In this document: positions 1 to 26,516 of the stretch, in pieces
Numbering within the stretch: position 1 is the stretch's first letter
Layout: each line of letters begins with the position of its first letter
Assembly: GCF_019237615.1 (NCBI RefSeq)
Contig: NZ_JAFAGT010000107.1
Span: forward strand, 1 to 61,632
Reading direction: 5' to 3'
Origin: Roseateles sp.
GTDB taxonomy: Bacteria > Pseudomonadota > Gammaproteobacteria > Burkholderiales > Burkholderiaceae_C
DNA length: 61,632 nt
Translations under genes and position numbers: made by a program
Notes under the pieces: generated by a model
The model's database searches: none
What the model was told of the DNA's origin: nothing
What the model saw: the letters and a program-made list of their open reading frames with translations, nothing else

Positions 1-147
1 CCTCACCCAGCCCAGCCCAACCCAGCACCGCGCCCTGCAACTCGTCCAAGACATCAAGTTGTAGACAGCAGCCGCACCCCCGATTCCCGCCAAGTGCTTG
101 AATCAACAGGGAAACTCGGCCGGAGGCTCGAGGAACTTCAGGCTAAT
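1..147 (+). repeat. Left copy of 147-bp terminal inverted repeat
   Basis: The sequence is the exact reverse complement of the last 147 bases of the window. Identity ends at base 147; beyond it the left copy continues with AAGAGG and the right copy with CCCGCA. Read rightward, the repeat carries the end of an open frame (stop TAG at 62-64) and 83 bases of non-coding DNA. Because both copies lie exactly at the window ends, the simplest view is that a longer repeated sequence ended the assembled contig on both sides. Confidence 0.97.
2..64 (+). CDS. 3' end of an unidentified gene inside the terminal repeat
   Basis: Twenty sense codons in frame 2 end at TAG (62-64) with the tail HRALQLVQDIKL. 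The same tail is present on the minus strand at the right end, since it lies in the inverted repeat. The rest of the gene would be outside the window. In the left copy it stands upstream of an hsdR remnant in the same direction, so a neighbouring restriction-modification subunit is possible, but the tail itself is not diagnostic. The reading frame is open and codon use is plausible; nothing more can be said. Confidence 0.3.
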   Translation, partial: LTQPSPTQHRALQLVQDIKL

Positions 148-192
148 AAGAGGAAGTCGGCAATGACCAGGGAGCAGCTGAATAAAAACGTT

Positions 193-556
193 ATGACGGA
201 GGCCGATACCCGCCGGGAATTGGTCACCCCGAAGATCGTTCAGGCAGGGTGGTTCAGTTCGCCTTTCTCCATCGGGGGAACAACGCACGTTCACCAACGG
301 CCGCATCTTCGTGGCAGGTGGCAAAGTCAGGCGTGGAAAGCAACACCGGGCTGACTACATCCTCTTCTACCGCCGCAACCTCCCCCTGGCCGTGGTCGAG
401 GCCAAGGAGGCCAGCCTGCCCGCCGAAACGGGTGTGCAGCAGGTCCGCGAGTACGCCGAGGCCCTGGGGCTCAAGCTCGCCTGTGCCACCAACGGCCATC
501 GGATCATTGAGATCGACTACCTGGCCGGCACCGAGCGCGAGGTCACCCTAGTCTGC
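193..556 (+). pseudogene. hsdR: Type I restriction endonuclease subunit R (HsdR), N-terminal remnant
   Basis: The ATG at 193 opens MTEADTRRELVTPKIVQAGW, typical of the start of EcoEI-type HsdR. The frame then breaks at a run of five G (274-278). Removing one G rejoins it to the next frame, which continues FTNGRIFVAGGK, then ADYILFYRRNLPLAVVEAKE with the nuclease D...EAK residues, and ATNGHRIIEIDYLAGTE. Similarity stops near 556, after about 120 residues of a protein that is normally 800 or more. The helicase motor is missing, so this cannot be a working R subunit. No hsdM or hsdS is seen inside the window. Confidence 0.85.
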
Positions 557-930
557 AAACGACTTGTTCGTGGTGGCCGCCGTGCTCTTGTGCTGGTAGC
601 GCCGGCTGACAGGTTCAGTTTGAGCCGGTCGCCCAACTGGAAAGCAGTTGGCACCCCAACACGGTTGCACTGTCTTGAGTGGCTTCCATTTGTCCAGAAT
701 GCTGGTCAAAAGTTGATGTTTTGACCATAAAGCTGAACAAACGATTGTGCCGACTGGCTGCCCGTCAAGGGCCCGTCGCAGCAGCCCGCGCCAATCACCC
801 CACCGCAAGCAGCGGCACCGGCACAGAGGCCGGCGCAATGGCCACACCCGCCTGTTCGAGTATCCAGGCCTCGATGCGCTCATGGCGCATGCGCAGCAGG
901 TCCAGGGGGCGTCCATGTACGGATTTAGGA
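557..930. other. Non-coding or decayed stretch between hsdR remnant and LysR gene
   Basis: No convincing gene. On the minus strand an open frame ends at 795 and contains MRHERIEAWILEQAGVAIAP, which might be the tail of a lost gene that once followed the LysR regulator; I do not recognise it. Bases from about 150 to 740 are clearly less GC-rich than the rest of the window, consistent with an acquired or degraded segment. Confidence 0.5.
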
Positions 931-1866
931 TCAGTCTTCAGGTGTGTCTTCGGGGCTTCCCCCCGCTCCGTCGGTCGGACCCAGCCGCGCCTTGTAGAAG
1001 CTGAAGAACGCCTCCACCGTCCTGTCCTCGCGTGCATTCCTCGCTGTGAGGAAACCGAACTCGGTCGTCAACTCGGGCACCAGCAGACGCGTGTTGCGGG
1101 TGCCCTCCGGGCGACGATTGCGGGCGAGCAACTCATCGACCAGCGCAATGCCGACGCCGGCCTCCGCCATCGCGCAGGCCACCGACGCGTTGTTGGTCTC
1201 GCTCCTGGACTTCGGAATGACCCGGTGACGGCGAAACACATCGAGCAGCCGTGAGCGCGTCGTGCTGCTGTGGCCGATCAGGATCAGGGGTTCATCGGCC
1301 AGGTCGCGAGGCGTCAGGGTCGGCTTGGCCAGCAGGGCGTGCCCAGGCGGAAGCACACAGGTGATGCGGGTCTGCAGCAGGCCGCGCACGCGAATGTCGG
1401 GATGCTCGCAGGGGAGCTTGCCGATGCCGCAATCCGCCGCCCGCGCGGCCACCATGTGCATGGCGGTCGGCCTCAGATGCGCCATCACCGAGATGCGCAG
1501 CTGCGGGTGAAGGCGCTGGAAGTCGGCCAACACCGGCACCAGCGCCCCTTCCGCGAACGTTGGCGGCGCGACGATCCGAAGGTGTCCCGCGCTGAGCTTT
1601 TGCAGATCTTCCGCGAGCGCACCAATGCGATCCATGCCCTGCAGGGCGATGTCCACTTCCTCGTAGAGCGCCTGGGCACGGCTGTTGGGCTGCAGCCGCC
1701 CGTTGACGCGGTCGAACAGCTTGAAGCCCAGCTCAGCCTCCAGTCCGCTCAGCAGCCGGCTCATGCCCGGCTGACTGATCCCCAGCGACCGCGCGGCCTC
1801 CGTCATGGAGCCCAAGGCCATGATCTCGCGGAAGCACTTGAGGCTGCGCAGACTTTCGATCTTCAT
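931..1866 (-). CDS. LysR family transcriptional regulator
   Basis: A 311-residue LysR-type regulator. The N-terminal winged helix-turn-helix (about residues 5-64) includes AARSLGISQPGMSRLLSGLE; the rest is a periplasmic-binding-like effector domain (about 90-300). It is the last gene of the seven-gene operon: its ATG overlaps the stop of the hydrolase gene by four bases (ATGA), which implies translational coupling. LysR regulators are more often divergent from their targets; here it is co-transcribed, so it may autoregulate the operon in response to the imported compound. The ligand is unknown. Confidence 0.9.
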   Translation of the reverse strand: MKIESLRSLKCFREIMALGSMTEAARSLGISQPGMSRLLSGLEAELGFKLFDRVNGRLQPNSRAQALYEEVDIALQGMDRIGALAEDLQKLSAGHLRIVAPPTFAEGALVPVLADFQRLHPQLRISVMAHLRPTAMHMVAARAADCGIGKLPCEHPDIRVRGLLQTRITCVLPPGHALLAKPTLTPRDLADEPLILIGHSSTTRSRLLDVFRRHRVIPKSRSETNNASVACAMAEAGVGIALVDELLARNRRPEGTRNTRLLVPELTTEFGFLTARNAREDRTVEAFFSFYKARLGPTDGAGGSPEDTPED

Positions 1867-3791
1867 CCGGGCCAGGCTCGACGAGCCGCATCAACGTTGA
1901 GGACGCATATGCTCACACGAGAAGGCGTGTGAGCGCCGAGGTGCAGCGTATTGCGGGCCACGCGGCTCTCTCGCCAGTCACCTTCGGGAGCGCCCGTGTT
2001 CGGGTTCGGGTCGAAATGCGGGAAGTTGCTGCTGGAGATATCGATCCGCAGGCGGTGTCCGGCGCAGAAGCGGTTGGCACTGGGGAAGGGCTGAACGGTC
2101 GCCTCGAAGACCTTGCCGGGCTCCATCAGACTCGGCTGCTCCCAGCTGTCGCGATACCGCATGCGCAAAATGCCGTCGGTGATGTTGAGCGCAAAGCCGT
2201 CCGGGTAGTCGGGGGTCGGTGGATACCAGTCGATCAGCTTCGCCGTGAAGTCGGTATCCACGGCGTCGGAAGAGACGAACAGCGTGACCTTGACCTCCCC
2301 AACGAGATCCAGCGGCCCGGCCAGCGGCGCGCTGACAAAGCTCAGTACATCGGCACGTTCCGCCAGGTCGCGACCGCTGCCCTTGCAGCCGAAGAAGCGC
2401 GGGTCGTCCCGCTGGTCGAATCCGCCCCCCACCATGACCGGCTCGGCCGAGGTGATGGTGCCGCCCATCGTTGGCACCGGATGCCTCGGGTCGTAGTCAT
2501 AGCTGAGCGAAGCGGCGTCGGCGGTCGGGGCATCGGCGGCCAGACGTCCATCCGCGTGCAGGAACAGTTCCAGGTTCTGGCTGCCCGGCAGCGGCCATGC
2601 GTCGGCGAAGTGCCAGCGCCCGCCGTGGTCCATGCGCCCTGAGGGCAGCTTGCGGCCGCTGCCCCCGCCCATGATGAAGACCGCCACGCGCCGGCCCGAC
2701 AACGGGTCGGGCGGCACACTGCCGTCGGCGGCGGCCCGACCCAGGGCATGGTCGAACCATTCCCGACGCAGCGTCAGATAGTCCTTCGCGAGGTTGCCGT
2801 CCAGGGTGGACTGCGGCCCGAAGTCCACGTCCCCGGAGAAGGTCTGCGAGCGGCGCCCATGCACCCAAGGCCCCATGATCAGGGACGGTCGGCATTGCTT
2901 GAACCGGCTCAGGCCCAAGTAGTTGCTGATGGCCGTGCTCGCATACGGGTCGTACCAGCTGGACATGTGCACGGTCGGGACGTCCGCATAGCCGGGATAG
3001 TGGCCCGCCGCCCAGAGAGCCGGACGGCGCCAGTAATCGTCGAAGCTGCCATGGCGCCACTGCTCGAACAGGTAGGCCTCGTACTCCGGCGCCGCCGTGA
3101 CGGGCGAGTGGCCTGGCCACCAGGGCAGCCGCGTCAGCCACTCGCGGATGTCCACCGACGCGAGGGCCGCGGCCCGTGCGGGATCCTCCTGCGTGCTCGG
3201 GCTCAGGCGCGCATGCTTGAGGGCCCATGTGACCTGCTTCAGCTCGAACGCCCCCCCTTGCCGGATCCCTGCATGGAAGGCGCTCGCAAAGCCACCGGAA
3301 TCCATCCACTGCGCGGCCAGCCCGTCGGGGTTGAGTGCCCCCAGCGCCGACTGCGTGTGGGCACAGTAGGACAGCCCCCAGGTGGCGATCCGCCCGTCGC
3401 AGAACGGCTGATCGCGCAGCCACGCCAGCGTGTCGACGCCGTCCTCCGCCTCGTCCAGGTACTTGCGGAACACCCCCTCGGAGCCATAGCGCCCGCGGCA
3501 GTCCTGCAGCACCACCACATAGCCGTGGCTCGCGAAGTACCGGGCGATCTCGGGCTTGCTGAGGCCGCTCGGGTTGGCCACGCTGCGGTCGGCCGCGTTG
3601 CTGCCGCGCTTGTTGTAGGGCGATCGCTCCATGAGCACGGGCAGTGCCTGCGTCAGCAGCACGCCGTTCAGCGCGGGCCTGTAGATGTCGGTGGCAAGCC
3701 GGACGCCGTCGCGCATGGGAACCATGTGTTCGACGCAGTCGACGTCATAGGGACCGTGGTCGGGCGCTGCGGGCAAGGGGTGATCGGTCAT
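1863..3791 (-). CDS. CocE/NonD family hydrolase
   Basis: A 642-residue alpha/beta hydrolase of the X-Pro dipeptidyl-peptidase S15/CocE class, whose members cleave esters, amides or acyl groups (cocaine esterase, glutaryl-7-ACA acylase). The nucleophile is probably Ser141 in WGLSYCAHT, where relatives usually have Gly after SY. A plausible acid is in HMSSWYDPYAS and the histidine in MGPWVHG. The C-terminal part is the usual jelly-roll domain. There is no signal peptide, so it should act in the cytosol on what the adjoining ABC transporter imports. Its ATG overlaps the stop of the binding-protein gene. The substrate cannot be told from sequence. Confidence 0.88.
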   Translation of the reverse strand: MTDHPLPAAPDHGPYDVDCVEHMVPMRDGVRLATDIYRPALNGVLLTQALPVLMERSPYNKRGSNAADRSVANPSGLSKPEIARYFASHGYVVVLQDCRGRYGSEGVFRKYLDEAEDGVDTLAWLRDQPFCDGRIATWGLSYCAHTQSALGALNPDGLAAQWMDSGGFASAFHAGIRQGGAFELKQVTWALKHARLSPSTQEDPARAAALASVDIREWLTRLPWWPGHSPVTAAPEYEAYLFEQWRHGSFDDYWRRPALWAAGHYPGYADVPTVHMSSWYDPYASTAISNYLGLSRFKQCRPSLIMGPWVHGRRSQTFSGDVDFGPQSTLDGNLAKDYLTLRREWFDHALGRAAADGSVPPDPLSGRRVAVFIMGGGSGRKLPSGRMDHGGRWHFADAWPLPGSQNLELFLHADGRLAADAPTADAASLSYDYDPRHPVPTMGGTITSAEPVMVGGGFDQRDDPRFFGCKGSGRDLAERADVLSFVSAPLAGPLDLVGEVKVTLFVSSDAVDTDFTAKLIDWYPPTPDYPDGFALNITDGILRMRYRDSWEQPSLMEPGKVFEATVQPFPSANRFCAGHRLRIDISSSNFPHFDPNPNTGAPEGDWRESRVARNTLHLGAHTPSRVSICVLNVDAARRAWPG

Positions 3792-5413
3792 GGCCGGCTC
3801 CGCTCAGGGGTGGGGGCGCGACTCACGTTCTGCGCCAGCGTGCGCTCGTCGCGCCGTGCTGTGAAGGCCAGGCCCGGCCGGCCGGCCCAGCTCGCCTGCT
3901 GGTGATACAGGGGAATGATCGCCACGTCGGCGAACGCCGCGGCCGCGGCCTGACCGACCAGCGCGTCCAGGGCGGGGCCATGCTCGGCGGCGCTGGCCTG
4001 CTCCAACAGCCGGTCCACGAGGGCGTTGCGGTAGTGCCCGCGGTTGTTGGACCCGAAGCCGCGCCTGGGGTCCGGGCTGGCCAGCAGCGAGCGCATGACG
4101 TGCAGCGCCTCCCCGGTAGCGGCGCCGAAGCCGTAGAGGTAGAACCCGTATTCGCGCTTGCTCGCGCGCGGGAGGAACACGTTCTTGGGCACGGTATCGA
4201 GCTGCATCTGGATGCCGAGCTTGGCGAGCTGGATGGCCAGCCCCTGTGCGACCAGGGCGTCGTTGGGGTAGCGGTTGTTGGGGGCGTGCAAGGTCAGCCT
4301 GAACCCGCGCGGATAGCCGGCCTGTGCGAGCAGTGACCTGGCCTTCTGCAGGTTGAACTGCTCCCGCGGGATCTCGCCGTTGAAGCCGGGCGTTCCCTTG
4401 GGCACGACCTGATTGGCGGGGATGCCCATGCCGTCCAGCAGCTTGTCGACGAGCTGCTCCCGGTCGATTGCCAGTGACAAGGCCTGGCGTACCCGCAGGT
4501 CCTTCAGCGGATTGACCTTCAGGGGGCGGCCCTCGATGTCCGTGATCGACGGATTGACGTCGCGCTCCAGCTCCATGCCCAGGTACAGCAGCGTGACCGT
4601 GGGGGCCTGCCACAGCTCGAACCGGGCCTTGTGCTTCAGGGACTCGAGGTCGAACACCGGCACGGCGTCGATGAGATCGACGGTACCCGACTCCAGAGCT
4701 GCGAGGCGGGCCGCGTCGGCCGTCATGTAGCGAACCGTCACCCGCTCGAAGTCGGGCTTGTCGCCCCAGTACTGATCAAAGCGCAGCAGCTCCAGTCGGT
4801 CCGCCGGCACCCAGCGGACGAATCGGTAGGGCCCCGTGCCGATGGCGGCGCGCCCGGCGTTGAACTGCTGGGTCTCCAGCCTGGCGCCCAGCTTGCTGCT
4901 GACCATCATCACGGTGGAGATGTTGACCAGGGCCTGGGGGTCGGGCTTGCGGGTGGTCACACGTACCAGCAAAGGCCCCAGCACCTCGACCTTGCTGATG
5001 TTGGCCACCCGCGACCTGAACGGTGCGGGGCTGTTGGGCACGTTCGCCGCTCGGTCGAGGCTGAAGCGCACATCCTCGGCGTCGAACGGTTGGCCGTCGT
5101 GGAACTTGACGTTCGGGCGCAAGGCGAACTCCCACTGTGTGGGACTCACCCGCGTGGCAGACAGGGCCAGGGCCGGCTGCAGGCGCAGTTGCGCATCCCG
5201 GGTGAACAAGGGCTCGAACATCTGCATCGCCGTGGCCTGATTGGTCCCCACGGTCGAGAACTGCGGATCCATGGCGTTGGGCTCGGCCCGGGTCGCGATG
5301 ACGAGGGTGGTGCGGGAGTCTGCGGCCGTGGTGGCGCCATGGCAGACGCCCGTGGTCATCCCGATGAAGAGCGCGGACACGATAGCCCGCCATCCTCGCA
5401 TCGCTGGTCTCAT
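3788..5413 (-). CDS. ABC transporter substrate-binding protein, peptide family 5
   Basis: A 541-residue DppA/OppA-type binding protein. From the ATG at 5413 (MRPAMRGW) it has a signal peptide ending near CHG-A, then the family 5 fold, with EPNAMDPQFSTVGTN near the start and FHDGQPFDAEDVRFSLDRA in the ligand-lobe region. An upstream in-frame extension toward 5866 runs antiparallel through the ATPase gene and was discarded. It lies five bases downstream of the ATPase stop and overlaps the hydrolase start. The protein would deliver a peptide, or a compound resembling one, to the DppB/DppC-type permeases. Confidence 0.93.
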   Translation of the reverse strand: MRPAMRGWRAIVSALFIGMTTGVCHGATTAADSRTTLVIATRAEPNAMDPQFSTVGTNQATAMQMFEPLFTRDAQLRLQPALALSATRVSPTQWEFALRPNVKFHDGQPFDAEDVRFSLDRAANVPNSPAPFRSRVANISKVEVLGPLLVRVTTRKPDPQALVNISTVMMVSSKLGARLETQQFNAGRAAIGTGPYRFVRWVPADRLELLRFDQYWGDKPDFERVTVRYMTADAARLAALESGTVDLIDAVPVFDLESLKHKARFELWQAPTVTLLYLGMELERDVNPSITDIEGRPLKVNPLKDLRVRQALSLAIDREQLVDKLLDGMGIPANQVVPKGTPGFNGEIPREQFNLQKARSLLAQAGYPRGFRLTLHAPNNRYPNDALVAQGLAIQLAKLGIQMQLDTVPKNVFLPRASKREYGFYLYGFGAATGEALHVMRSLLASPDPRRGFGSNNRGHYRNALVDRLLEQASAAEHGPALDALVGQAAAAAFADVAIIPLYHQQASWAGRPGLAFTARRDERTLAQNVSRAPTPERSRP

Positions 5414-5418
5414 GCTTG

Positions 5419-6456
5419 TCACTGGATATCCGTCGTCTGATGCAGATGGCAGGCTGCGCCGTGGCCCGGCTGCAGCTCGCGCCATGCCGGCGTCTGCTGC
5501 CGGCAGACCGGCATCGCGTGCGGGCAGCGCGGGTGGAAATGGCAGCCGGGCGGCGGTGCAAGCGGCGACGGAATCTCGCCCATCACGGGCGTGTAGGCGC
5601 CTTGCCGCTTGCCCACCTGGGGCAGCGCCATCAGCAGTCCCTTGGTGTAGGGGTGCTGCGGACGCTCGAAGACCTCCTGCACGGGCCCCGACTCCACCAT
5701 GCGGCCCAGGTACATGATGACCACGCGGTCGCTGACATGGCGCACGACGGCCAGATCGTGGCTGATGAAGAGGCTGGCGAGACCCAGCTGCCGGCGCAGG
5801 TCCATGAACAGGTTCAGGACCTGGGACTGCACCGAGACGTCGAGCGCGGCCACCGGCTCGTCGCACAGCAGGAGCTCAGGTTGCATCGCCAGTGCGCGCG
5901 CGATGCCGATGCGCTGGCGCTGGCCGCCGGAGAACTCGTGCGGCCAGCGCTGTGCCGCGTCCGCCTGCAGGCCGACCTGGTCGAGCAGCGCAGCCACACG
6001 TGCCGCCTGCTCATCCCGGGCCCAGAGTCCATGCACGACGGGCGCCTCGCCGATGAGGTCCAGCACCCGCAAGCGTGGATTCAACGAGGCCATGGGGTTC
6101 TGGAACACCATCTGAACGCCGCCAGAGGCCGCGTGGGCCGCGGTGGCCCGCGCGCTCCGCCCCTGCCAGACGATGCTGCCTTCGGTGGGGCGGTCCAGGC
6201 CGCAGATGAGGCGCGCGAGCGTCGACTTCCCGCAGCCGCTCTCGCCGACCAGGCCGACGACCTCGCCGGGCTGGATCTGCAGGGAAACGCCGTCCACGGC
6301 GTGCACGACCTGTCCTTGCGCCCTCCTGCCGAGCAGCAGCCCGCGTGCGCGGGCCCACAGGCTGGGCGGCCGGCTGAAGCGGCGCACGACCTGACGCACG
6401 TCCAGCAGAGGCGGCGGCAGGAGCGATGTTGTGTTGACAGCGTTCACGGACGACAT
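5419..6456 (-). CDS. Peptide ABC transporter ATP-binding protein (DppF/OppF type)
   Basis: A 345-residue ATPase with Walker A GLVGESGCGKSTLA, signature FSGGQRQRIGIA, Walker B LLLCDEPVAALD and the C-terminal oligopeptide-transporter extension (CHFHPRCPHAMPVC). It is the second ATPase of the importer, paired with the ATPase half of the fusion protein upstream. The start at 6456 (MSSVNAV) lies eight bases past the fusion gene's stop; an alternative start at 6486 would overlap it. The SBP gene follows five bases later, so all parts are likely made from one transcript. Confidence 0.93.
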   Translation of the reverse strand: MSSVNAVNTTSLLPPPLLDVRQVVRRFSRPPSLWARARGLLLGRRAQGQVVHAVDGVSLQIQPGEVVGLVGESGCGKSTLARLICGLDRPTEGSIVWQGRSARATAAHAASGGVQMVFQNPMASLNPRLRVLDLIGEAPVVHGLWARDEQAARVAALLDQVGLQADAAQRWPHEFSGGQRQRIGIARALAMQPELLLCDEPVAALDVSVQSQVLNLFMDLRRQLGLASLFISHDLAVVRHVSDRVVIMYLGRMVESGPVQEVFERPQHPYTKGLLMALPQVGKRQGAYTPVMGEIPSPLAPPPGCHFHPRCPHAMPVCRQQTPAWRELQPGHGAACHLHQTTDIQ

Positions 6457-6464
6457 CCAGTCGG

Positions 6465-8384
6465 TCAAACCAGGGGGTGGTGGCACAGGGCCGACCGTGG
6501 CGCATCGGCGGTGCCAAGCCGGACCACGGGCACCGGCGTTGCGCAGCGCTCGTCGGCGCGTGAGCAGCGGTCGCGGAAGCCGCAGCCAGGATCCTTGCCC
6601 ACTTTGCTGGTCACCATGCCGGGGATCTGCCGGAGCCGCTGACCGGGCGTGTTGGCCGCGGGGAGGGAGTCGAGCAGCCCGCGCGTGTAAGGGTGTGCGG
6701 GTGCCGCCAGCACCTCGTGGGTCGGCCCTTGCTCCACGATCCGCCCCCGGTACATGACCGCCACGCTCTGCGTGAGGCCTTCCACGACGCCCAGGTCGTG
6801 CGTGACCCAGATCGCCGCCATGCCCTCCTCGCGGGCCAGGCCCTGGAACTCCGCCAGGATCTGGCTCTGGATGGTCACGTCGAGCGCCGTCGTCGGCTCG
6901 TCGGCGAGCACGACGCCGGGGCGGTTCAGCAGGGCGATGGCGATCGCGACCCGCTGCCGCATCCCGCCGGACAGCTGATGCGGGTACTGCGCCAGGCGCT
7001 CCTGCGGCGAGGGAATGCCCACGCGTGCCAACATCCGGGCGGCCAGCTCCTGCGCCTGGGCGTCGCTCACGCGGCGGTGCGCGTGCACCGCCTCCGTCAT
7101 CTGGCTGCCGATGCGCAGCACGGGATTGAGTGCAGTTGTCGGGTCCTGGAAGATGAGAGAGATGTCCTTGCCGCGCCTGGCTTGCAGCTCCGTCTCGCCC
7201 ATGGCCACCAGATCCACCCCTTGCAAGAGCACCTGGCCGGCGGTCACGCGCCCGGGCGCGTTGATCATTCCCATGATGGCGCGCGCCGTCATCGACTTGC
7301 CCGAGCCCGATTCGCCGACCAGCCCCAGGACCTCCCCGCGCCGCACGCTCAGGCTGACATCGTCCACGGCGTGCAGGGGGCCGGCCGGTGTGTCGAACAC
7401 CACGCTCAGGCCCTCGACGCGCAGCGGCCTGTCGTCGGCGTCACTGCCGCGGGAGGCCTGCCGTTCGCGGGGCGCGGGCGCAAGGTCCAGCGGCAGCATG
7501 ACGCCCTTGCGCAGCCGGGGATTGAAGTACTCGCGCAGCCGATCGCCCACCAGGTTCAGGCTGCCGACCAGCAGCAGCAGGGCCAGGCCTGGATACAGGC
7601 TGATCCAGTAGTCGCCATTGAGCAGGAACTGTGATCCGTTGGCGATCAGCAGGCCCAGGGACGGCTCGCTGATGGGCAAGCCGATGCCGAGGTAGCTCAG
7701 CGTCGATTCCAGCAGGATGGCGCTGGCCACCTGGATGGTGAGCACGACCAGCAGCGGCGGCAGGCAGTTCGGTAGCAGGTGCTTGAGGAGCTGGCGCCAC
7801 AGCGGCAGCCGCAGAACCCTCGCGGCGTCCATGTACTCCTGATGCACCTGGGGCAGGGCGGCGGCCCGCGCGGTGCGCGCAAACGGCGCCCACTGCACGA
7901 TGATCAGTGCCAGCACGATCTTGTCCAGGCCCTTGCCGAGCACGGCGAGCAGGATCAACGCCACCAGCAGCGTGGGGAAGGACAGCTGCAGGTCCACCAG
8001 GCGCATCAGCAGGGCATCCACCCGGCCGCCCCGATAGGCGCTGAAAAGACCCACCGAGACGCCCACGGCGAACGCGACGATGCCCGCGGTCAGGCCCACC
8101 ATCAGGCTCATGCGCAGCCCGTACAGGATCGCCGACAGCACATCGCGGCCCAGCACGTCGCTGCCCAGCAGGTAGGTGGCGCCGGAGGCCGCCCCGCCGA
8201 GCGGCGGCGTGCGGCTGTCCTCCAGCCTGAGGCTCGCCAGGTCATAGGGATTCTGCGGCGCCAGGTAGGGCGCGAAGCTTGCGCCCAGCAGGAGCAGCAT
8301 GAGCACGGCCAGGGCCACGACAGCCACGGGGCTGCGGGCGTACTCCCGCCAGAACTCGGCAAACGGCTTGGAGGATGCGCTCAT
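6465..8384 (-). CDS. Fused peptide ABC permease (DppC) and ATP-binding protein (DppD)
   Basis: A 639-residue fusion. Residues 1 to about 290 form a DppC-type permease with several membrane spans and the EAA-like loop [20 protein letters not shown]. After a short linker (about 290-318), residues 320-639 are a complete ATPase with Walker [15 protein letters not shown], signature [12 protein letters not shown], Walker [13 protein letters not shown] and the Cys-containing C-terminal extension. Such fusions are known in this transporter class but most systems use separate proteins. The reading frame is continuous and codon use is even, so it is not a sequencing artefact. Its ATG overlaps the DppB stop by four bases. 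Confidence 0.93.
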
Positions 8385-9328
8385 CGGGCCTGGTCCAGCC
8401 TCACGCGGGGATCGAGCGCGGAATAAAGAAGGTCAACCACGAGATTGATGGTGATGAAGATGACGACCACGACCATCAGATAGGCAACGATCACCGGGCG
8501 GTCCAGCACGGCGATGCTGTCGACGATGAGCTTGCCCATGCCCGGCCATGCGAACACGGTCTCGGTGACGACGGCGAAGGCGATGAGCCCGCCAAACTCC
8601 ATGCCCGTCACCGTGAGCACCGGCACCATCACGTTCTTGAGGGCATGCACGGCCAGGATGCGGGTGCTTGCGACGCCCTTGGACCTCGCATAGTCGATGT
8701 AGTCCATCGTCAGGGCCTCGCGCATCGCGTTGGCGGTCAGCCGGGTCACGAGCGAGATCTTGAACAGCGCCAGATTGAGTGCCGGCAGGATCAGGTGACT
8801 GAACCGGTCCCAGCTCCACAGCGGACCGTTGCCGCGCCCGCTGGACGGCAGCCAGCCCAGCAGCACCGAGAACACCAGCACCAGCATCAGTCCCTGCCAG
8901 AAGCTCGGGAACGAGACGCCCAGGATGGCGCCCGTCTGTATGGCCCTCCCCGGCAGGGACTTGGGCCGGGCCCCGGCCCACAGGCCCAGCGGCACGCCCA
9001 GCAGCAGCGCCAGCAGCAGAGCGGTGGTCGCGAGCTCCAGCGTCGCCGGCAGGCGCTCCAGGATGAGTTCCAGCGCGGGCTGGTTGTAGACGAAGGAGCG
9101 TCCCATCTCGCCCCGCAGCGCATTGCTGACGAAGTGGCCGTACTGGACCCAGACGGACTGGTCCAGCCCGAGCGTGCGGATGGCCTCCAGGCGTTCCAGC
9201 TGCGTGGCTTCCGGGTCGATGAGGATGTCGGCCGGGTTGCCGATGACGAAGACGCCGAAGAACACCAGCGCCGACATCACGGCCACGACCAGGACGCTTT
9301 GCAGCAAGCGCCGAAACAGAAATCCCAT
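8381..9328 (-). CDS. Peptide ABC transporter permease (DppB type)
   Basis: A 315-residue inner-membrane permease. The N-terminal span (LFRRLLQSVLVVAVMSALVF) and the C-terminal signature DYIDYARSKGVASTRILAVH, followed by GGLIAFAVVTETVFAWPGMG, are typical of DppB. A GTG-ATG doublet gives two possible starts (9331 and 9328). It lies 41 bases after the TonB receptor's stop and overlaps the fusion gene by four bases, so it belongs to the same operon. It forms the translocation channel with the DppC half of the fusion protein. Confidence 0.93.
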   Translation of the reverse strand: MGFLFRRLLQSVLVVAVMSALVFFGVFVIGNPADILIDPEATQLERLEAIRTLGLDQSVWVQYGHFVSNALRGEMGRSFVYNQPALELILERLPATLELATTALLLALLLGVPLGLWAGARPKSLPGRAIQTGAILGVSFPSFWQGLMLVLVFSVLLGWLPSSGRGNGPLWSWDRFSHLILPALNLALFKISLVTRLTANAMREALTMDYIDYARSKGVASTRILAVHALKNVMVPVLTVTGMEFGGLIAFAVVTETVFAWPGMGKLIVDSIAVLDRPVIVAYLMVVVVIFITINLVVDLLYSALDPRVRLDQAR

Positions 9329-9369
9329 CACGGTGAGATGCCCTCGTCCTTGAACATGTGCCTATCGGG

Positions 9370-12144
9370 TCAGAAGCGCACCGCCGCCTTCACGTACACG
9401 AAGCGCCCGCGGGGATCGTAGGTGCCGATGTTGAAGTTGTTGTCCGTGGCGCCGGCCAGGTAGGACAGGGGCGGCTTGCGGTCGAACAGGTTGTTGATGC
9501 CCAGCGACACCGAATGCAGGCGCTTGGGATCAGCGCCGAAGCTGTAGGACATCGACAGGTCGTTGGTGACGGATGCCGAGACCGGCGTGGGCACAAACTG
9601 CTTGGTCGTCGGGTCCTGGACGGACTCGGTGTAGCCGCCGATGTAGCGCAGCGCCCAGTTCGCGCCCCACGCGCCCCGTTGCCACGCCAGCGTGAAGCTG
9701 CCCTTGATGCGCGGATAGGCCTTGCGGCTGATGCCCGTGCCCTGCAGGTCCTGGTGGATGGTGCTGCCATCGCTTTGGGGGATGACCTGCTCGAAGCGGT
9801 CCAGATAGGACAGGCTCAGCGCCGTGCTGAAGGCGCCCAGGGACTGCGCGCGCCAGCCGTAGCGCGCGGTGCTGTCCAGGCCGGCCACGCGCAGCGATGC
9901 GAGGTTCAGATAGGCCGCCGTCAGGTTCGCGATGCTGCCGTCCGCGTTTCGCTGCACCACGTCGCAGCCCCGTCCGGTGCGGGCGCACAGCCCCAGCAGC
10001 GTGTTGGCGTCTATCGTCTGGATGGTGTTGTCCATCTTGATGTCGTACCAGTCCATCGACCAGGAGAACTCCTTCAGCGCGGAGGGCGTGAAGACGAACC
10101 CCAGCGAGCGGTTCAGGGACGTCTCTGGCTTGAGTGACGGATTGCCCCCGGTGATGCCGGGCACCTTGCCCGCCGTCGTGGCGGCCTGGCTGTAGGTGGC
10201 AGGGACGCCGGCGCAACCGGGCAGGCCCGCACCGCCGCCGTCGCAGGGGTCGGCGCTGATGGGGAAGACGGTGCTGCGCAGGCCGCCGTACAGCTCCAGG
10301 ATGTTGGGGGCACGGAAGCCCTGCGCCACGTCGCCGCGGATCATGAGGTCCTGCACCGGGCGCCAGTTCAGGCCGGCCTTGCTGTTGAGCGTGTCGCCGA
10401 AGTTGCTGTAGCGGCTGTGCCGCGTCGCGAGCGTGGCTTCTAGCGAGTGCGCGCCCGGCCGCTTGGCCAGCAGCGGGATCTTGAACTCGGCATAGGCCTC
10501 GCTGAGGTGGTAGCGGCCGTCGGTGGGCGTGCTCGCCGTGCCGGTGGTGGTCGTGGAGCCGGAGAACTGCGGGGTCGCGTTCAGGAACGCGTCCGGCTGG
10601 TCATAGGCACTCTCTTCCCGGTACTCGACGCCGGCCGCGAACGCGAGCGCCCCGGCAGGCAGCCGCATGATGTCGCCGGTGATGTTGGCCACCATGTCCA
10701 AGGACTTGGTGCCGTTGCGCCCCACCAGCGCAGGCGCCCGCACGGCATCGGCCATGGCCGGGGTGAGCGGCCCGAACAGCGCGATCGGCGTGCACTGACG
10801 AGCGGCGCAGCGGGCCGTGTCGCCGATGCCCAGCGCCACGTTCTCCAGGTTCAGCTGGTTGAGCGCGGTGAAGCTGGCCTTGTTTTCCGCCTGGCTGACG
10901 AACGCATTCCAGGTCCAGCCGTTGGCCAGGGACCCGTCCAGGCCGATGCCCAGGCGGGTCGTCTCGACCTTCTGCAGGTTGAAGCGGTCGCCGACTTCCA
11001 CCATGGTCCGGTTGACCGTGAAGCCGCTCAAGGTGCTGCCAAACGGGTTGTAGGCATGGTTCGCGGGCATGACCTGCCCCTTCATGCCGGCGCCGCCGAT
11101 CACGAGGGCCGCAGGATTGAAGCGCTGACTGGACTCGCGGGTGTTGTAGAGGCCTTCGGCGATGAGGTCCAGGGAGTCGCTGATCGCCACGCGCGCCTGT
11201 CCGTAGACGGCCTTGCGCTCCGACGGGCCGATGAGATAGCCGTCGGTATTGGTGTCGTAGACATCGCTCGCCACCTTGAGCCGGAAGTCGGACGGTTTGG
11301 TGCCGGCGGCGCCGTCCACCCGCGTGAACGCCTTGCCTGCCTGCACACCGGGGACCACGTAGACGCCACCGGGAAGCTGCGTGCTCTGGATGGGTTGATA
11401 TCGGGCCAGCGCCCAGTCCCTGTCGGTGGTGGCGATGGGATCGGACTTCGCGAACGAGGCGGAGACCAGCGCGCTGCCCCATTCGCCGGACTTGCCCCAC
11501 AGCACATCGGCGCTGCGGCTTTGCCCGTCACCGCGGCTCGTGGCGCCCGCCTGGAGATTCAGCTGCCCGCCTTCGTACTTCTGGTAGGTGATGATGTTGA
11601 CGACGCCGGCAATCGCGTCGGAGCCGTAGATTGCCGTGGCGCCGTCCAGCAGGATCTCGACGTTCTGCACGGCCGCCAGCGGGATGGTGTTGAGGTCGAC
11701 GAAGTCCCGGAAGGAGCGTGATCCCGCGCCCACCACCCAGCGCCGCCCGTTGACGAGCACCAGCACCCGGTTGGGCTCCAGATTTCGCAGGTTCACCGAG
11801 CTGCTGCCGTGCGACGTGCCCTGGGAACCGTTGGAGTTGGCGCTCGACCCGACAGACGGGAGTTGCTGCAGCAGGTCGCCGACCGAGCTGACGCCCGTCG
11901 CTTCGATCTCCTTGCGATTGAGCGTGACCACCTGGTTGGGTGCGCTCTCATCCAGCCGGCGAATCCGCGATCCCACCACAAGCACCGAGTCCAACTTGCC
12001 GGCTTCACTCTGCGCCACCGCCTCGAGGGGCGCCACGGTCAGCGCCGTGGGCAGGGCCAGCGCCGCCAGGGCCGCTGCGGCGACGGAACTGAGACCGCTC
12101 GCTGAATCGAACGATCGCAGGGAACGAATGGGGGCGCGAAGCAT
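9370..12144 (-). CDS. TonB-dependent outer membrane receptor
   Basis: About 924 residues from the ATG at 12144. The signal peptide ends near AVAQ. The plug domain follows (SVLVVGSRIRRLDESAPN, VLVLVNGRRWVVGAG, GSDAIAGVVNIIT) and then a 22-strand-type barrel ending in aromatic F (FVYVKAAVRF). The sequence resembles the large receptors used for peptides, sugars and other organic substrates more than classical siderophore receptors, but that is inference. It is the first gene of the operon and would take the substrate across the outer membrane. In-frame codons upstream to 12396 are rejected because the signal peptide fits the later ATG. Confidence 0.93.
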   Translation of the reverse strand: MLRAPIRSLRSFDSASGLSSVAAAALAALALPTALTVAPLEAVAQSEAGKLDSVLVVGSRIRRLDESAPNQVVTLNRKEIEATGVSSVGDLLQQLPSVGSSANSNGSQGTSHGSSSVNLRNLEPNRVLVLVNGRRWVVGAGSRSFRDFVDLNTIPLAAVQNVEILLDGATAIYGSDAIAGVVNIITYQKYEGGQLNLQAGATSRGDGQSRSADVLWGKSGEWGSALVSASFAKSDPIATTDRDWALARYQPIQSTQLPGGVYVVPGVQAGKAFTRVDGAAGTKPSDFRLKVASDVYDTNTDGYLIGPSERKAVYGQARVAISDSLDLIAEGLYNTRESSQRFNPAALVIGGAGMKGQVMPANHAYNPFGSTLSGFTVNRTMVEVGDRFNLQKVETTRLGIGLDGSLANGWTWNAFVSQAENKASFTALNQLNLENVALGIGDTARCAARQCTPIALFGPLTPAMADAVRAPALVGRNGTKSLDMVANITGDIMRLPAGALAFAAGVEYREESAYDQPDAFLNATPQFSGSTTTTGTASTPTDGRYHLSEAYAEFKIPLLAKRPGAHSLEATLATRHSRYSNFGDTLNSKAGLNWRPVQDLMIRGDVAQGFRAPNILELYGGLRSTVFPISADPCDGGGAGLPGCAGVPATYSQAATTAGKVPGITGGNPSLKPETSLNRSLGFVFTPSALKEFSWSMDWYDIKMDNTIQTIDANTLLGLCARTGRGCDVVQRNADGSIANLTAAYLNLASLRVAGLDSTARYGWRAQSLGAFSTALSLSYLDRFEQVIPQSDGSTIHQDLQGTGISRKAYPRIKGSFTLAWQRGAWGANWALRYIGGYTESVQDPTTKQFVPTPVSASVTNDLSMSYSFGADPKRLHSVSLGINNLFDRKPPLSYLAGATDNNFNIGTYDPRGRFVYVKAAVRF

Positions 12145-12647
12145 GGAAGAGCCTTGTTTGTGCTTGATGACCGCTCGCGGAGAACCGCAGGAACGGGGCC
12201 GAAATGAAGGATAGGTTTGCGCCTCCAGCTCATGCAACTTCATTGTGTTTAAAGATGGCTCCATGCTGCTTTGGTATGAAATATCGAAAACCCGTAGCCG
12301 TTTCCCCGAGGTCGCCGGCGGGCTCTGTGGCCGGGGCGAAGGGGCGGATCGGACCTTCGGCGAGGGGGGCGCAACGCTGGTAGCGGCTGCCGCCATGGGC
12401 CATCGGCCAAGTCGGTATCGACTTGCGGGGGCCGTGCCCGGAAGGACTCAAGATCGAGGCGGCCAAGCAGAACACGGAGCGAGGCCCTCGGGTGGCGCTT
12501 GTCGACCGGGGGGGGGCGGCAACTCGGGTCGGTCTGCGTGCCTTGGCACGGACAGGGCGCGGAGGGGGGGCTTTCGTCGCCGTCAGCAAATGCGCGCTAT
12601 GGCGCATTCGACGGTGCAAGAGCAACGGACCTGTGGGCTCGTCCGGT
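12145..12647. promoter_or_regulatory. Intergenic control region of the receptor-importer-hydrolase operon
   Basis: About 500 bases between the receptor start and the DUF1439 gene, which is transcribed towards this region, so any operon promoter must be here. On the minus strand a weak sigma-70-like pair is visible: TTGCAT (12232-12237) and TATCCT, separated by 18 bases (box near 12208-12213). The half nearer 12.5 kb contains long G runs (12509-12517, 12563-12569) and open frames on both strands without recognisable protein similarity. No riboswitch or clear LysR T-N11-A operator could be assigned by eye. Confidence 0.35.
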
Positions 12648-13208
12648 CTATTGCCGCTCCGCCGAGGCGAAGCTGATCCTCAGCTTGCCGTCGACGACCT
12701 TCACGTCCTTCACCGCCAGCTTCGCCAGCGCTCCCTTGGCCGTGCCGGTGTCGATGGTGTAGACGGGACGGGACCGCAGCTGAGCGTTGAGCGCCTCCGG
12801 CCCGCTCCGCTTCACGAGGGCCGCGTACTCCTCGGGAAGACCGGCGAACTCCAGCGTCGTGATCTGCAGGTCGTCGAGGAAGAGCTGGCCTTCTGCGGGC
12901 ACATAGCGCGGCCGGCCGGAGAAGCCCAGGCGGCCGGTGCGCTCGCGCCCGCCCAGCGCCACCTTGGCGTCGACGTTCAGGCCGATGCGATCCTCGCCCT
13001 CGGTCAGAACGACGACCGGGTTGGCGAGGTCCAGGCAGGCGATGACGAGCTTGCAATGGTGCGTCGGGAAGCGCGTCGCGATGCGGGCTTGCAGCTCGGC
13101 CGGTTCGATGTCGAGATGACCGGCCGAGAGCTTGTCCACGATGGCGCAGGTTGCCAGCGCCGCGGCGGCAAGCAGGGCGACGGAGAGGGCGGCGAGGCGG
13201 CGGTTTAT
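12648..13208 (-). CDS. DUF1439 domain lipoprotein (YceB-like), start codon unusual
   Basis: The mature part (163 residues from a GTG at 13139) has the DUF1439 features: FPTHHCKLVIACLDLANP, LGFSGRPRYVPAEGQLFLDDL and a C-terminal VVDGKLRISF. In frame upstream is an apparent lipoprotein signal, NRRLAALSVALLAAAALATC, but the codon before it is ATA (13206-13208). An in-frame stop lies four codons before that ATA, so no ATG, GTG or TTG can serve. Either ATA initiates, the ATG was mutated, or a shorter leaderless protein is made. The family is thought to sit in the outer membrane with unknown function. Confidence 0.75.
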   Translation of the reverse strand: MNRRLAALSVALLAAAALATCAIVDKLSAGHLDIEPAELQARIATRFPTHHCKLVIACLDLANPVVVLTEGEDRIGLNVDAKVALGGRERTGRLGFSGRPRYVPAEGQLFLDDLQITTLEFAGLPEEYAALVKRSGPEALNAQLRSRPVYTIDTGTAKGALAKLAVKDVKVVDGKLRISFASAERQ

Positions 13209-13469
13209 GGCGCAAGGCTACGCCATCGGCGTCGGCACGCGCGCCGGCACCGGCGACGCGGGGGCGGGCCGGACTTGTGCGCGGCCGACTCCCGCCTCGC
13301 CTCGTGCCTTCCCTCGGCTTTGGCATGGCTCGGCCCGCGGGCGCTGCCTGCCATGCCGCCCGCTTCCGCAGAGTTGGGGAGCCGCCCGGGCCGGCCCCGT
13401 GGCGCGGGGCGCTGATTTGCCCGAGGCTTTGCCCTATCGACAGCAGCCATCAAGCCGACGGGAGGGTTC

Positions 13470-14309
13470 ATGACATCCGTGGTCATCACTGGAAACCGCT
13501 ATCTGATCCACCCGGAGCAGGCCGACCGGTTCGGCCCCTTCGAGAAGACCTTCCTGGCCGAGGGCGATTCCTGGATGGATGCCAGCGCGGCCGTCCAGGG
13601 CTCGTTGCCCTTCTACCTCGCCGAGGAGTTCAACCGGCGTGGCAAGACCCACCTCATCGTCAACATCTCCACGTCGGGGCAGACGCTGCAGCGCATCTCG
13701 CAGACCATGAGCGGCGAGTACCTGTGGTGGTTGCAGCAGCTGCGCTACGACGCAGTCCTGCTCAGCGCCGGCGGCAACGACTTCATCGACGCCGCCCGCG
13801 ACGAGGCGCCGGGCGAGGGCCTGCTGCGCGACATGCAGGGCCAGCCCTTGCCCGCCGATGGCTATGCCTGCGTCCGCCAGGACGCACTGGCCAGCCTGGT
13901 CGACGGCTACCTGAACCCCAACTTCGACGCGATGTACCAGGCGTTGCGGTCCAGCGCCAGGAACGCAGGCACGCCGCTGCTGCTGAACTGCTACGACACG
14001 CCGGTGGCCCGCAACGCGCCGGCCATTCCGAATCTGGTGGGACCCTGGCTCTGGACGGCCTATCGCAACAACCACATCGATCCCTCGCTGTGGCCGACGC
14101 TGACTGCGGGCCTGTTCAAGGACATCAAGGGTGCGGTGCAGGCCTGGCCGGTCGGGCGCACGGGCGTCGTCGCCGTGCCCACCACCGGCGTGCTGGTGCC
14201 GGCCGAGGCCGACTCGACCGGCAGCAGCGGCGACTGGAAGAACGAGATCCATCCCAACGCCAGCGGCTGGCGCAAGCTGGCCAGGATCTGGGCCGACCTG
14301 CTGGCCTGA
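13470..14309 (+). CDS. SGNH/GDSL family hydrolase
   Basis: A 279-residue predicted esterase-like enzyme. Block I is FLAEGDSWMD with the Ser nucleophile, block III is LLSAGGNDFID, and block V is NEIHPNASGW with the catalytic His; an acidic residue lies two before it. No signal peptide is evident. It has its own start (ATG after AGGGTTC) and 263 bases of non-coding DNA upstream of it. SGNH enzymes act on acyl esters of lipids or polysaccharides; the actual substrate is unknown. Gene 14379 follows after 69 bases in the same direction. Confidence 0.85.
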   Translation: MTSVVITGNRYLIHPEQADRFGPFEKTFLAEGDSWMDASAAVQGSLPFYLAEEFNRRGKTHLIVNISTSGQTLQRISQTMSGEYLWWLQQLRYDAVLLSAGGNDFIDAARDEAPGEGLLRDMQGQPLPADGYACVRQDALASLVDGYLNPNFDAMYQALRSSARNAGTPLLLNCYDTPVARNAPAIPNLVGPWLWTAYRNNHIDPSLWPTLTAGLFKDIKGAVQAWPVGRTGVVAVPTTGVLVPAEADSTGSSGDWKNEIHPNASGWRKLARIWADLLA

Positions 14310-26198: not shown

Positions 26199-26516
26199 TC
26201 AGTCCTCGTTCTTGAAGACGAGCTTGACTTCGTGGCTGGCCTTCTCGCCCGGCTCGAACTTCCACTCCATCAGCGCCGCCTTCACTGCGCGGTCGAAGAC
26301 GCGCTTGGGCTCGGCCTCGAGGATCTCGACGTCGCTGACCTTGCCATCGGCCTCGATGACCAGCTTGGCCTTGACGACGCCGGTGGAGATGCCCTTCTTG
26401 GCGGCCTCGGCCGGGAAGTCGGGCGGCACCTTCTTGACGATCTTGGGCGTGGCCTGGGCGGCCAGGGCCAGCATCAGGCCGGCGGCGAGGACGGTGACGG
26501 AACGCAGGAGTGACAT
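26199..26516 (-). CDS. TonB C-terminal domain protein
   Basis: 105 residues: a signal or anchor helix (LLRSVTVLAAGLMLALAAQA), then a TonB C-terminal fold (PPDFPAEAAKKGISTGVVKA, KVSDVEILEAEP, FDRAVKAALMEWKFEP). The long Pro-rich spacer and ExbB-contacting helix of true TonB are absent, so it may not energise receptors by itself. The gene lies 30 bases after the upstream chemoreceptor gene (same strand) and may be co-transcribed. No exbB/exbD is nearby. Convergent with the cold-shock-domain gene. Confidence 0.82.
   Translation of the reverse strand: MSLLRSVTVLAAGLMLALAAQATPKIVKKVPPDFPAEAAKKGISTGVVKAKLVIEADGKVSDVEILEAEPKRVFDRAVKAALMEWKFEPGEKASHEVKLVFKNED

What the first reader, a model, noticed from the sequence alone, without database searches (positions are those of the whole stretch)
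931..12144. Self-contained receptor, importer, hydrolase and regulator operon
Seven genes on one strand, five of the six junctions overlapping or nearly so, encode an outer-membrane TonB receptor, a peptide-type ABC importer, a cytosolic CocE/NonD hydrolase and a LysR regulator. Together they can take one substrate from outside to cytosol, cleave it and sense it. Typical Dpp/Opp operons lack both the receptor and this hydrolase. The hydrolase class cleaves esters, beta-lactam side chains and proline peptides, so the substrate may be a peptide-like natural product, antibiotic or acylated compound larger than porins admit.
Basis: partly seen in the sequence, partly recalled or inferred. Interest (0 to 1): 0.75.

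Follow-up and report, generated by a model that had tools for sequence, protein, structure and literature searches.

The report
Hybrid nutrient uptake-and-cleavage operon
A bacterium carries a seven-gene set that looks built to pull one unknown compound through both cell membranes, cut it inside and sense it; family trees suggest the set was put together from two older versions by exchanging the inner-membrane pump.

Summary
Seven minus-strand genes at 931-12144 encode a TonB-dependent receptor (TBDR), permease B, a fused permease C-ATPase D, ATPase F, a family-5 binding protein (SBP), a signal-less CocE/NonD hydrolase and a LysR regulator; five of six junctions overlap. One of 19 same-genus genomes carries the whole set, 85% identical over 971-12278 with unrelated flanks.

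This hydrolase recurs beside such ABC importers (17 of 57 relatives), so the receptor is the unusual part. In the seven other receptor-bearing relatives found outside that genus pair, the inner-membrane step is a single secondary carrier (AbgT in 2, DcuC family in 5). Trees of receptor, hydrolase and LysR place the window with those cassettes; a five-protein importer tree places its importer among hydrolase-linked ABC importers. Best reading: a receptor-carrier-hydrolase-LysR cassette whose carrier was replaced by an ABC importer from a parallel hydrolase-linked lineage.

The substrate is unknown; an amino-acid-containing ester or amide is the best guess. That it is too large for porins is not established. 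Co-transcription is untested.

The parts
12145..12278 (-). conserved leader of the operon, possible promoter/LysR site (inferred)
   Evidence: blastn match to L016 ends at 12278; block about 12211-12278 aligned; the consensus scan found no promoter-like site here
9370..12144 (-). TonB-dependent outer-membrane receptor, 924 aa, signal-like N-terminus (by eye)
   Evidence: Plug and TonB_dep_Rec_b-barrel; PDB sequence matches cover only the plug end, within residues 50-241; nearest relatives are TBDRs of hydrolase clusters
8381..9331 (-). inner-membrane permease B (Dpp/Opp/Nik type)
   Evidence: BPD_transp_1; best NCBIfam model Opp2B 265.9 bits, below its cut-off of 350
6465..8384 (-). fused permease C + ATPase D, one 639-aa frame
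   Evidence: OppC_N, BPD_transp_1, ABC_tran, oligo_HPY in one protein; same fusion in L010
5419..6486 (-). ATPase F (start uncertain)
   Evidence: ABC_tran + oligo_HPY; PRK11308 361.5 bits, below its cut-off of 408
3788..5422 (-). family-5 periplasmic binding protein, signal-like N-terminus (by eye)
1863..3791 (-). CocE/NonD alpha/beta hydrolase without a signal-like N-terminus (probably cytosolic); Ser141-Asp281-His311, Tyr59
931..1866 (-). LysR-type regulator, last gene of the unit
   Evidence: HTH_1 + LysR_substrate; in a starred clade of nine LysRs, all from TBDR-bearing clusters

Best explanation
It is a single uptake-and-hydrolysis operon. The TBDR, energised by TonB, brings a scarce substrate across the outer membrane; the SBP hands it to an Opp/Dpp-type ABC importer (permease B, fused permease C-ATPase D, ATPase F); the cytosolic CocE-type serine hydrolase cuts an ester or amide bond in it; LysR senses the substrate or a product and, by inference, acts on the leader upstream of the TBDR and so on its own gene. 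By descent it is a hybrid: receptor, hydrolase and LysR belong to a lineage of TBDR - secondary carrier (AbgT or DcuC/YfcC family) - hydrolase - LysR cassettes, while the importer belongs to a lineage of ABC importers that sit next to hydrolases of the same family. Shown: gene content, block conservation, tree positions, catalytic residues. Inferred: co-transcription, substrate flow, regulation, direction of the exchange, and the substrate class (best guess an amino-acid-containing ester or amide, such as an acyl-amino acid or a short modified peptide).
For: Domains and junctions. Block conservation with unrelated flanks. TBDR-only search of 398 phylum genomes: 8 match at E <= 1e-120, the window's own included; the two best others (G357 44%, G488 45%) lie in TBDR-carrier-hydrolase-LysR clusters in the window's gene order, the other five (38-39%) have no hydrolase in the 15-20 kb fetched. 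Trees: TBDR in a starred set of 7, all hydrolase-linked (96/99); hydrolase in a starred set with L016, L013, L088, L089 (98/89), and joining it to ten Opp-ABC-linked hydrolases rejected (p-AU 4.6e-5); LysR in a starred set of 9 TBDR-linked regulators (100/99), joining it to the ABC-linked LysRs rejected (p-AU 4.7e-57). Five-protein importer tree of 25 loci: the window's importer in a starred set of 13, all 13 hydrolase-linked (96/96); 99/99 (set of 11) after two long rows are left out, with three placements among the rows outside that set rejected (p-AU 0.014, 0.021, 0.009). No AbgT family match in the own genome. TonB_C domains in it.
Against: The SBP alone does not resolve the importer's origin (81/76), and by plain score the window's SBP and permeases match importers without a hydrolase about as well as hydrolase-linked ones (SBP up to 434 bits against up to 458). 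The window's importer stem is long (0.95) with odd letter make-up. L038 and L083 are hydrolase-linked but their importers group with two importers without hydrolase. The comparison set without hydrolase is 10 loci, 3 of them the outgroup, drawn by similarity to the window's SBP. Groups for the p-AU tests were named after the trees had been seen, which weakens those p values. One of the three rejected placements is a mixed group (L038, L083 with two no-hydrolase loci). The TBDRs of L026 (295 bits) and L033 (172) are distant and L033's falls outside the clade, so receptors are exchanged too. All nine TBDR-linked hydrolases are not one clade in the best tree (not rejected either, p-AU 0.37). The full receptor + ABC form was found in two genomes only. 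A DcuC-family carrier exists elsewhere in the own genome, 28% identical to a cassette carrier. 25 of 57 hydrolase relatives show none of the partners looked for. The substrate is unknown.
Confidence: 0.7

Rival explanations
1. Metallophore route: the TBDR and a Nik/Cnt-like ABC importer take in a metal complex, and the cytosolic esterase opens the chelator to release the metal, as enterobactin esterase does (recalled).
For: Permease B scores best with a nickel-permease model (Opp2B, 265.9 bits); NikA/NikZ chains rank close to DppA for the SBP model; TBDRs are classically metallophore receptors (recalled).
Against: No Nik/Cnt model among the rows shown reaches its cut-off. In homologous cassettes the inner step is an AbgT or DcuC/YfcC-like carrier, not a metal carrier. 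No reductase or metal-handling gene in the unit; the regulator is LysR.
Confidence: 0.1
2. Antibiotic or toxin entry and detoxification: the operon inactivates a peptide-like or ester antibiotic after importing it.
Against: Active import of a poison through a dedicated receptor is uneconomical; the AEH carboxylates at catalytic Asp +2 and +3 are absent. The defence library PADLOC was not searched.
Confidence: 0.07
3. Plain carboxylate-ester scavenging: the substrate is an ester of an organic acid, unrelated to amino acids.
For: TctA genes beside 4 of 57 relatives, CoA-ligase or CaiB genes near others, cocaine-esterase-like fold.
Against: AbgT, YfcC-like and Opp carriers, family-3 amino-acid SBPs, aminotransferases, a gamma-glutamyltransferase and PGA_cap genes also occur near the family, which points to amino-acid content; the family may be of mixed specificity.
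Confidence: 0.2
4. The window's operon is not a hybrid: TBDR + ABC + hydrolase + LysR was ancestral, and other lineages exchanged the ABC importer for single carriers.
For: Trees are unrooted by themselves and cannot give the direction of change; the SBP tree alone does not fix the importer's place.
Against: The seven other TBDR-bearing clusters found all have a single carrier, and the importer's nearest rows are ABC-hydrolase clusters whose hydrolases lie on another branch.
Confidence: 0.15

Closest known systems
TonB receptor - importer - cytosolic hydrolase systems (enterobactin FepA/FepBCDG/Fes; recalled)
   Same: Receptor, periplasmic binding protein, ABC importer and a cytosolic esterase acting in series.
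   Different: Peptide-type (family-5) importer, CocE/NonD hydrolase, LysR regulator; receptor matches solved TBDRs by sequence only over the plug end.
Dpp/Opp/Gsi/Nik importers
   Same: Family-5 SBP, two permease and two ATPase domains with oligo_HPY tails.
   Different: Permease C-ATPase D fusion; hydrolase and receptor in the same unit; no substrate-specific model among the rows shown reaches its cut-off.
Hydrolase-linked Opp clusters (Inquilinus L030/L043/L072, Ralstonia MAG L037, Ponticoccus plasmid L084)
   Same: Permease B, permease C, two ATPases, SBP, CocE in that order on one strand.
   Different: No TBDR; LysR divergent and of another branch; hydrolase of another branch.
TBDR - AbgT or DcuC/YfcC-family carrier - CocE hydrolase - LysR clusters (L013, L029, L063, L088, L089)
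   Same: Receptor, hydrolase and LysR of L013, L088, L089 group with the window's in all three trees, those of L029 and L063 in two; L088 and L089 have the same gene order.
   Different: One-gene secondary carrier instead of an ABC importer; a PGA_cap gene beside L013, L088, L089, none in the window's genome.
E. coli abgR-abgABT (recalled)
   Same: LysR regulator, AbgT carrier and cytosolic hydrolase for a small amide.
   Different: M20 peptidases instead of CocE, no receptor.

Membership tests
CocE/NonD family hydrolase (TIGR00976) | score over the curated cut-off and full length | tested here: met
   337.4 bits against 66.3, residues 24-631 of 642
CocE/NonD family hydrolase (TIGR00976) | Ser-Asp-His triad and oxyanion tyrosine | tested here: met
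   S141, D281, H311, Y59 invariant in 47 of 47 aligned; the cocaine-esterase alignment puts them opposite its GxSY, WYD, GPWxH and PY motifs, whose roles I recall
alpha-amino acid ester hydrolase | carboxylate cluster, two members at catalytic Asp +2 and +3 (Glu310, Asp311 in XrAEH, PMC3890990, passages seen) | tested here: not met
   the window reads D281-P-Y-A
X-prolyl dipeptidyl aminopeptidase | score over the PRK05371 cut-off | tested here: not met
Dpp/Opp-type ABC importer | family-5 SBP, BPD_transp_1 permeases, two ABC_tran with oligo_HPY | tested here: met
Nickel or staphylopine importer (Nik/Cnt) | equivalog cut-offs of Nik or Cnt models | tested here: not met
   below cut-off in every row shown, e.g. 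nickel_nikA 123.7 of 393, nickel_nikB 244.9 of 447, nickel_nikD 254.6 of 318.7; for the two ATPase proteins only the best 25 rows were shown
TonB-dependent receptor | Plug and beta-barrel domains; TonB in the genome | tested here: met
   TonB_C over the cut-off at 7 of 8 matched places of the own genome; the signal sequence was judged by eye only
LysR-type regulator | HTH_1 and LysR_substrate domains | tested here: met
   no ligand-specific NCBIfam model reached its cut-off among the 25 shown of 45
one operon | single transcript | not testable with these tools
   overlapping genes and block conservation only

The most novel reading that the evidence does not exclude
A modular trans-envelope catabolic cassette exists in which receptor, cytosolic CocE-type hydrolase and LysR sensor stay together while the inner-membrane carrier is exchanged between unrelated transporter classes (AbgT, DcuC/YfcC family, Opp ABC). 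All serve one still unrecognised amino-acid-derived compound, and the window caught an ABC-for-carrier replacement.
Probability: 0.4. Interest if true: 0.6.

Novelty: new variant of a known kind. Interest (0 to 1): 0.42.

Why it matters
If right, it is a natural case of unrelated importers replacing one another inside an otherwise fixed receptor-hydrolase-regulator cassette. That narrows the unknown substrate to what AbgT, YfcC-like and Opp carriers could all move, and gives a direct way to a ligand: the SBP can be purified and screened, which the single-carrier versions do not allow. It also gives a functional hint for a branch of CocE/NonD hydrolases, found here in several phyla, that carries only a generic name.

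Tried and rejected
Reading the hydrolase as an alpha-amino acid ester hydrolase: the Asp+2/+3 carboxylates are missing. As a proline dipeptidyl peptidase: far below the model. Reading the importer as a nickel importer: below the cut-offs of the models shown.

The promoter/terminator scan of 1-14000 gave nothing beyond the shuffles. Paper searches for the combination gave no description of it in their listings: (listings only; the library holds openly licensed PMC papers). Searches looked for the PGA_cap/MslH link and for AEH; of PMC10406935 and PMC3890990 I saw passages, of no paper more.

Rows dropped before counts: hydrolase pieces of 520 aa or less left out of the tree (76 to 68 rows), L010 left out because it is the same contig as L016; importer tree kept the 25 loci with all five proteins and permease B over 240 bits, L131 left out; L106 and L084 left out of the second importer tree as long rows. 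In one search a partner counts only if on the same strand and within 7 kb (PGA_cap on either strand); in 12 of the 25 'none' loci the hydrolase begins under 4 kb from the start of the fetched stretch, so some are cut short. The distant ABC type of L044-L046, L048, L053-L056, L058 and L070 was recognised by matches to the window's proteins only, not by Pfam.
Full report
What is there. The seven frames lie on the minus strand at 931-12144: LysR, CocE/NonD hydrolase, family-5 SBP, ATPase F, a fused permease C-ATPase D, permease B and a TBDR, each confirmed by Pfam. Four junctions overlap by 4 nt, one by 22 nt as called, and TBDR to permease B has a 38-nt gap. By eye the TBDR and SBP begin with signal-like stretches. 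The hydrolase does not, and the N-termini of eight relatives from TBDR-bearing clusters look signal-less too, so the enzyme is most likely cytosolic.

The unit is conserved as a block. Of 19 other genomes of the same genus examined, one (G007) has a match to the hydrolase at E <= 1e-40, and it carries all seven genes in the same order at 82-95% identity. Its contig has the length of JAACZV010000002.1, a Comamonadaceae MAG contig (L016), and I treat the two as one. blastn of the whole window against that locus gives one long match, 85% over 971-12278, and no match of the flanks; two short matches (67 and 101 nt) join ABC-ATPase genes. The neighbours there are a galactarate-dehydratase-like gene and an amidotransferase/hydroxylase pair; here they are an HsdR fragment, DUF1439, a GDSL lipase and an alkaline phosphatase. 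The match stops 134 nt before the TBDR start, so a leader is kept with the genes. Rarity: 4 of the other 148 relatives (E <= 1e-40), 7 of the other 398 family genomes (E <= 1e-130) and none of the other 368 class genomes (E <= 1e-130) have a hydrolase relative.

What the hydrolase keeps company with. A scan of genome contigs returned 57 hydrolase relatives at 48-82%. Counting same-strand partners within 7 kb: ABC importer genes of at least three kinds without TBDR 17 of 57, fewer ABC genes 2, TBDR + DcuC-family carrier 4, DcuC-family without TBDR 3 (one with PGA_cap), AbgT + PGA_cap 1, TctA 4, TBDR + ABC 1 (L016, the same-genus copy), none of these 25 (12 of them with under 4 kb before the hydrolase). 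The 17 hold at least two importer types, one close to the window's and one distant. Annotated plasmid records agree: Ponticoccus alexandrii has LysR divergent from permease-permease-ATPase-ATPase-SBP-CocE; Terrarubrum has the ABC genes, a gamma-glutamyltransferase and CocE. So the statement that Opp/Dpp operons lack this hydrolase does not hold; the TBDR is what is unusual.

Searching with the receptor alone. Of 398 phylum genomes, 8 matched at E <= 1e-120, the window's own included. The two best others (44 and 45%) both proved to be TBDR - AbgT or DcuC-family carrier - hydrolase - LysR, in the window's order, with a divergent PGA_cap gene. The other five (38-39%) have no hydrolase in the 15-20 kb fetched. 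With L013 (found through the hydrolase) and L026, L029, L033, L063 I found seven receptor-bearing relatives outside the genus pair. All seven have a single secondary carrier (AbgT in L013 and L088, DcuC family in the other five); none has a set of ABC importer genes near it, only L026 showing one weak ATPase hit (47 bits) some kilobases away.

Trees. TBDR (15 rows): window and L016 in a starred set of 7 (96/99), all hydrolase-linked; the L026 receptor is next outside and the L033 receptor falls away on a long branch. Hydrolase (68 rows): window and L016 in a starred set (98/89) with L013, L088 and L089; joining them to ten Opp-ABC-linked hydrolases is rejected (p-AU 4.6e-5). LysR (24 rows): nine TBDR-linked regulators form a starred clade (100/99); joining the window's to the ABC-linked ones is rejected (p-AU 4.7e-57). 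Importer, five proteins joined, 25 loci: the window lies in a starred set of 13 (96/96), all 13 hydrolase-linked. The 12 rows outside are three outgroup loci and seven other loci without hydrolase (L133, L137, L139-L143 as far as kept: L139, L140, L141, L142, L143) plus two hydrolase-linked loci, L038 and L083. Without two long rows support is 99/99 and placing the window with L133 + L143, with L137 + L140 + L142, or with L139 + L141 + L038 + L083 is rejected (p-AU 0.014, 0.021, 0.009). These groups were named after the first trees had been seen, so the p values are softer than they look. The SBP alone does not resolve the matter, and plain scores do not separate hydrolase-linked from other importers. 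Taken together: receptor, hydrolase and regulator share one history, the importer another, and both are tied to the same hydrolase family. This is the main new point; it also argues that these carriers move the hydrolase's substrate or something close to it.

Substrate. Unknown. Genes near members of the family that handle amino-acid compounds: AbgT carriers (best models ydaH and p-aminobenzoyl-glutamate transporter) and YfcC-like carriers, all four tested below cut-off; Opp importers; family-3 amino-acid SBPs in L032, L049 and L069; class I/II aminotransferases in L024 and L060; a glutamine-synthetase-like gene in L023; a gamma-glutamyltransferase; and PGA_cap proteins. Of the latter, L089's and L081's have MslH, a lasso-peptide epimerase, as their only NCBIfam hit (126 and 97 bits, cut-off 700), and L089's PDB hits (8ith, 8gq9, 8gqb, deposited under a capsule-protein name) I take to be MslH by recall; of the MslH paper PMC10406935 I saw passages. 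Against: TctA, CoA-ligase and CaiB genes elsewhere in the family suggest organic-acid products, and one DcuC-type cluster has an annotated OprD porin next to it instead of a receptor, so the family's substrates need not be large. I give an amino-acid-containing ester or amide about 0.45, a plain carboxylate ester 0.2, a metal chelate 0.1.

Novelty. All parts are of known kinds. The listings of my paper searches show no description of the combination. The receptor + ABC + CocE + LysR form, found in two genomes, is a new variant; the exchange of carriers within a fixed cassette is the part worth following.

Noticed in passing
window 311-724 (+): Fragment with an HsdR N-terminal domain (PF13588, 29 bits) near the contig edge, only 137 aa open; looks like a remnant or a cut type I restriction gene.
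   Followed up: no
window 26223-26426 (-): TonB C-terminal domain (51.5 bits) on the same contig, about 14 kb from the receptor.
   Followed up: no
window 6465-8384 (-); L028 17024-18898 (-): Permease C and ATPase D fused in one frame; a distant importer in L028 seems to have the same fusion, so the fusion is probably not unique to this genus.
   Followed up: partly
L085 9884-11831: Hydrolase of a Pseudomonas frederiksbergensis plasmid lies in two overlapping frames and is not annotated; LysR and a DcuC-family carrier precede it, an annotated OprD porin is divergent.
   Followed up: partly
L013 1277-2524, L027, L059 11818-13191, L081 11752-13029, L082, L088 6904-8124, L089 6557-7681: PGA_cap proteins recur beside this hydrolase in both carrier-type and ABC-type clusters; for L089 and L081, the two tested, the only NCBIfam hit is the peptide epimerase MslH, far below its cut-off.
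   Followed up: partly
L018, L019, L021, L066 (Gemmatimonadota): The hydrolase directly follows a TctA gene in these four loci, a further unrelated carrier class.
   Followed up: no
L032 (record titled Mycobacterium sp. KBS0706): The locus lies among Inquilinus limosus loci on very short branches in the hydrolase and importer trees; the record title is probably a misidentification.
   Followed up: no
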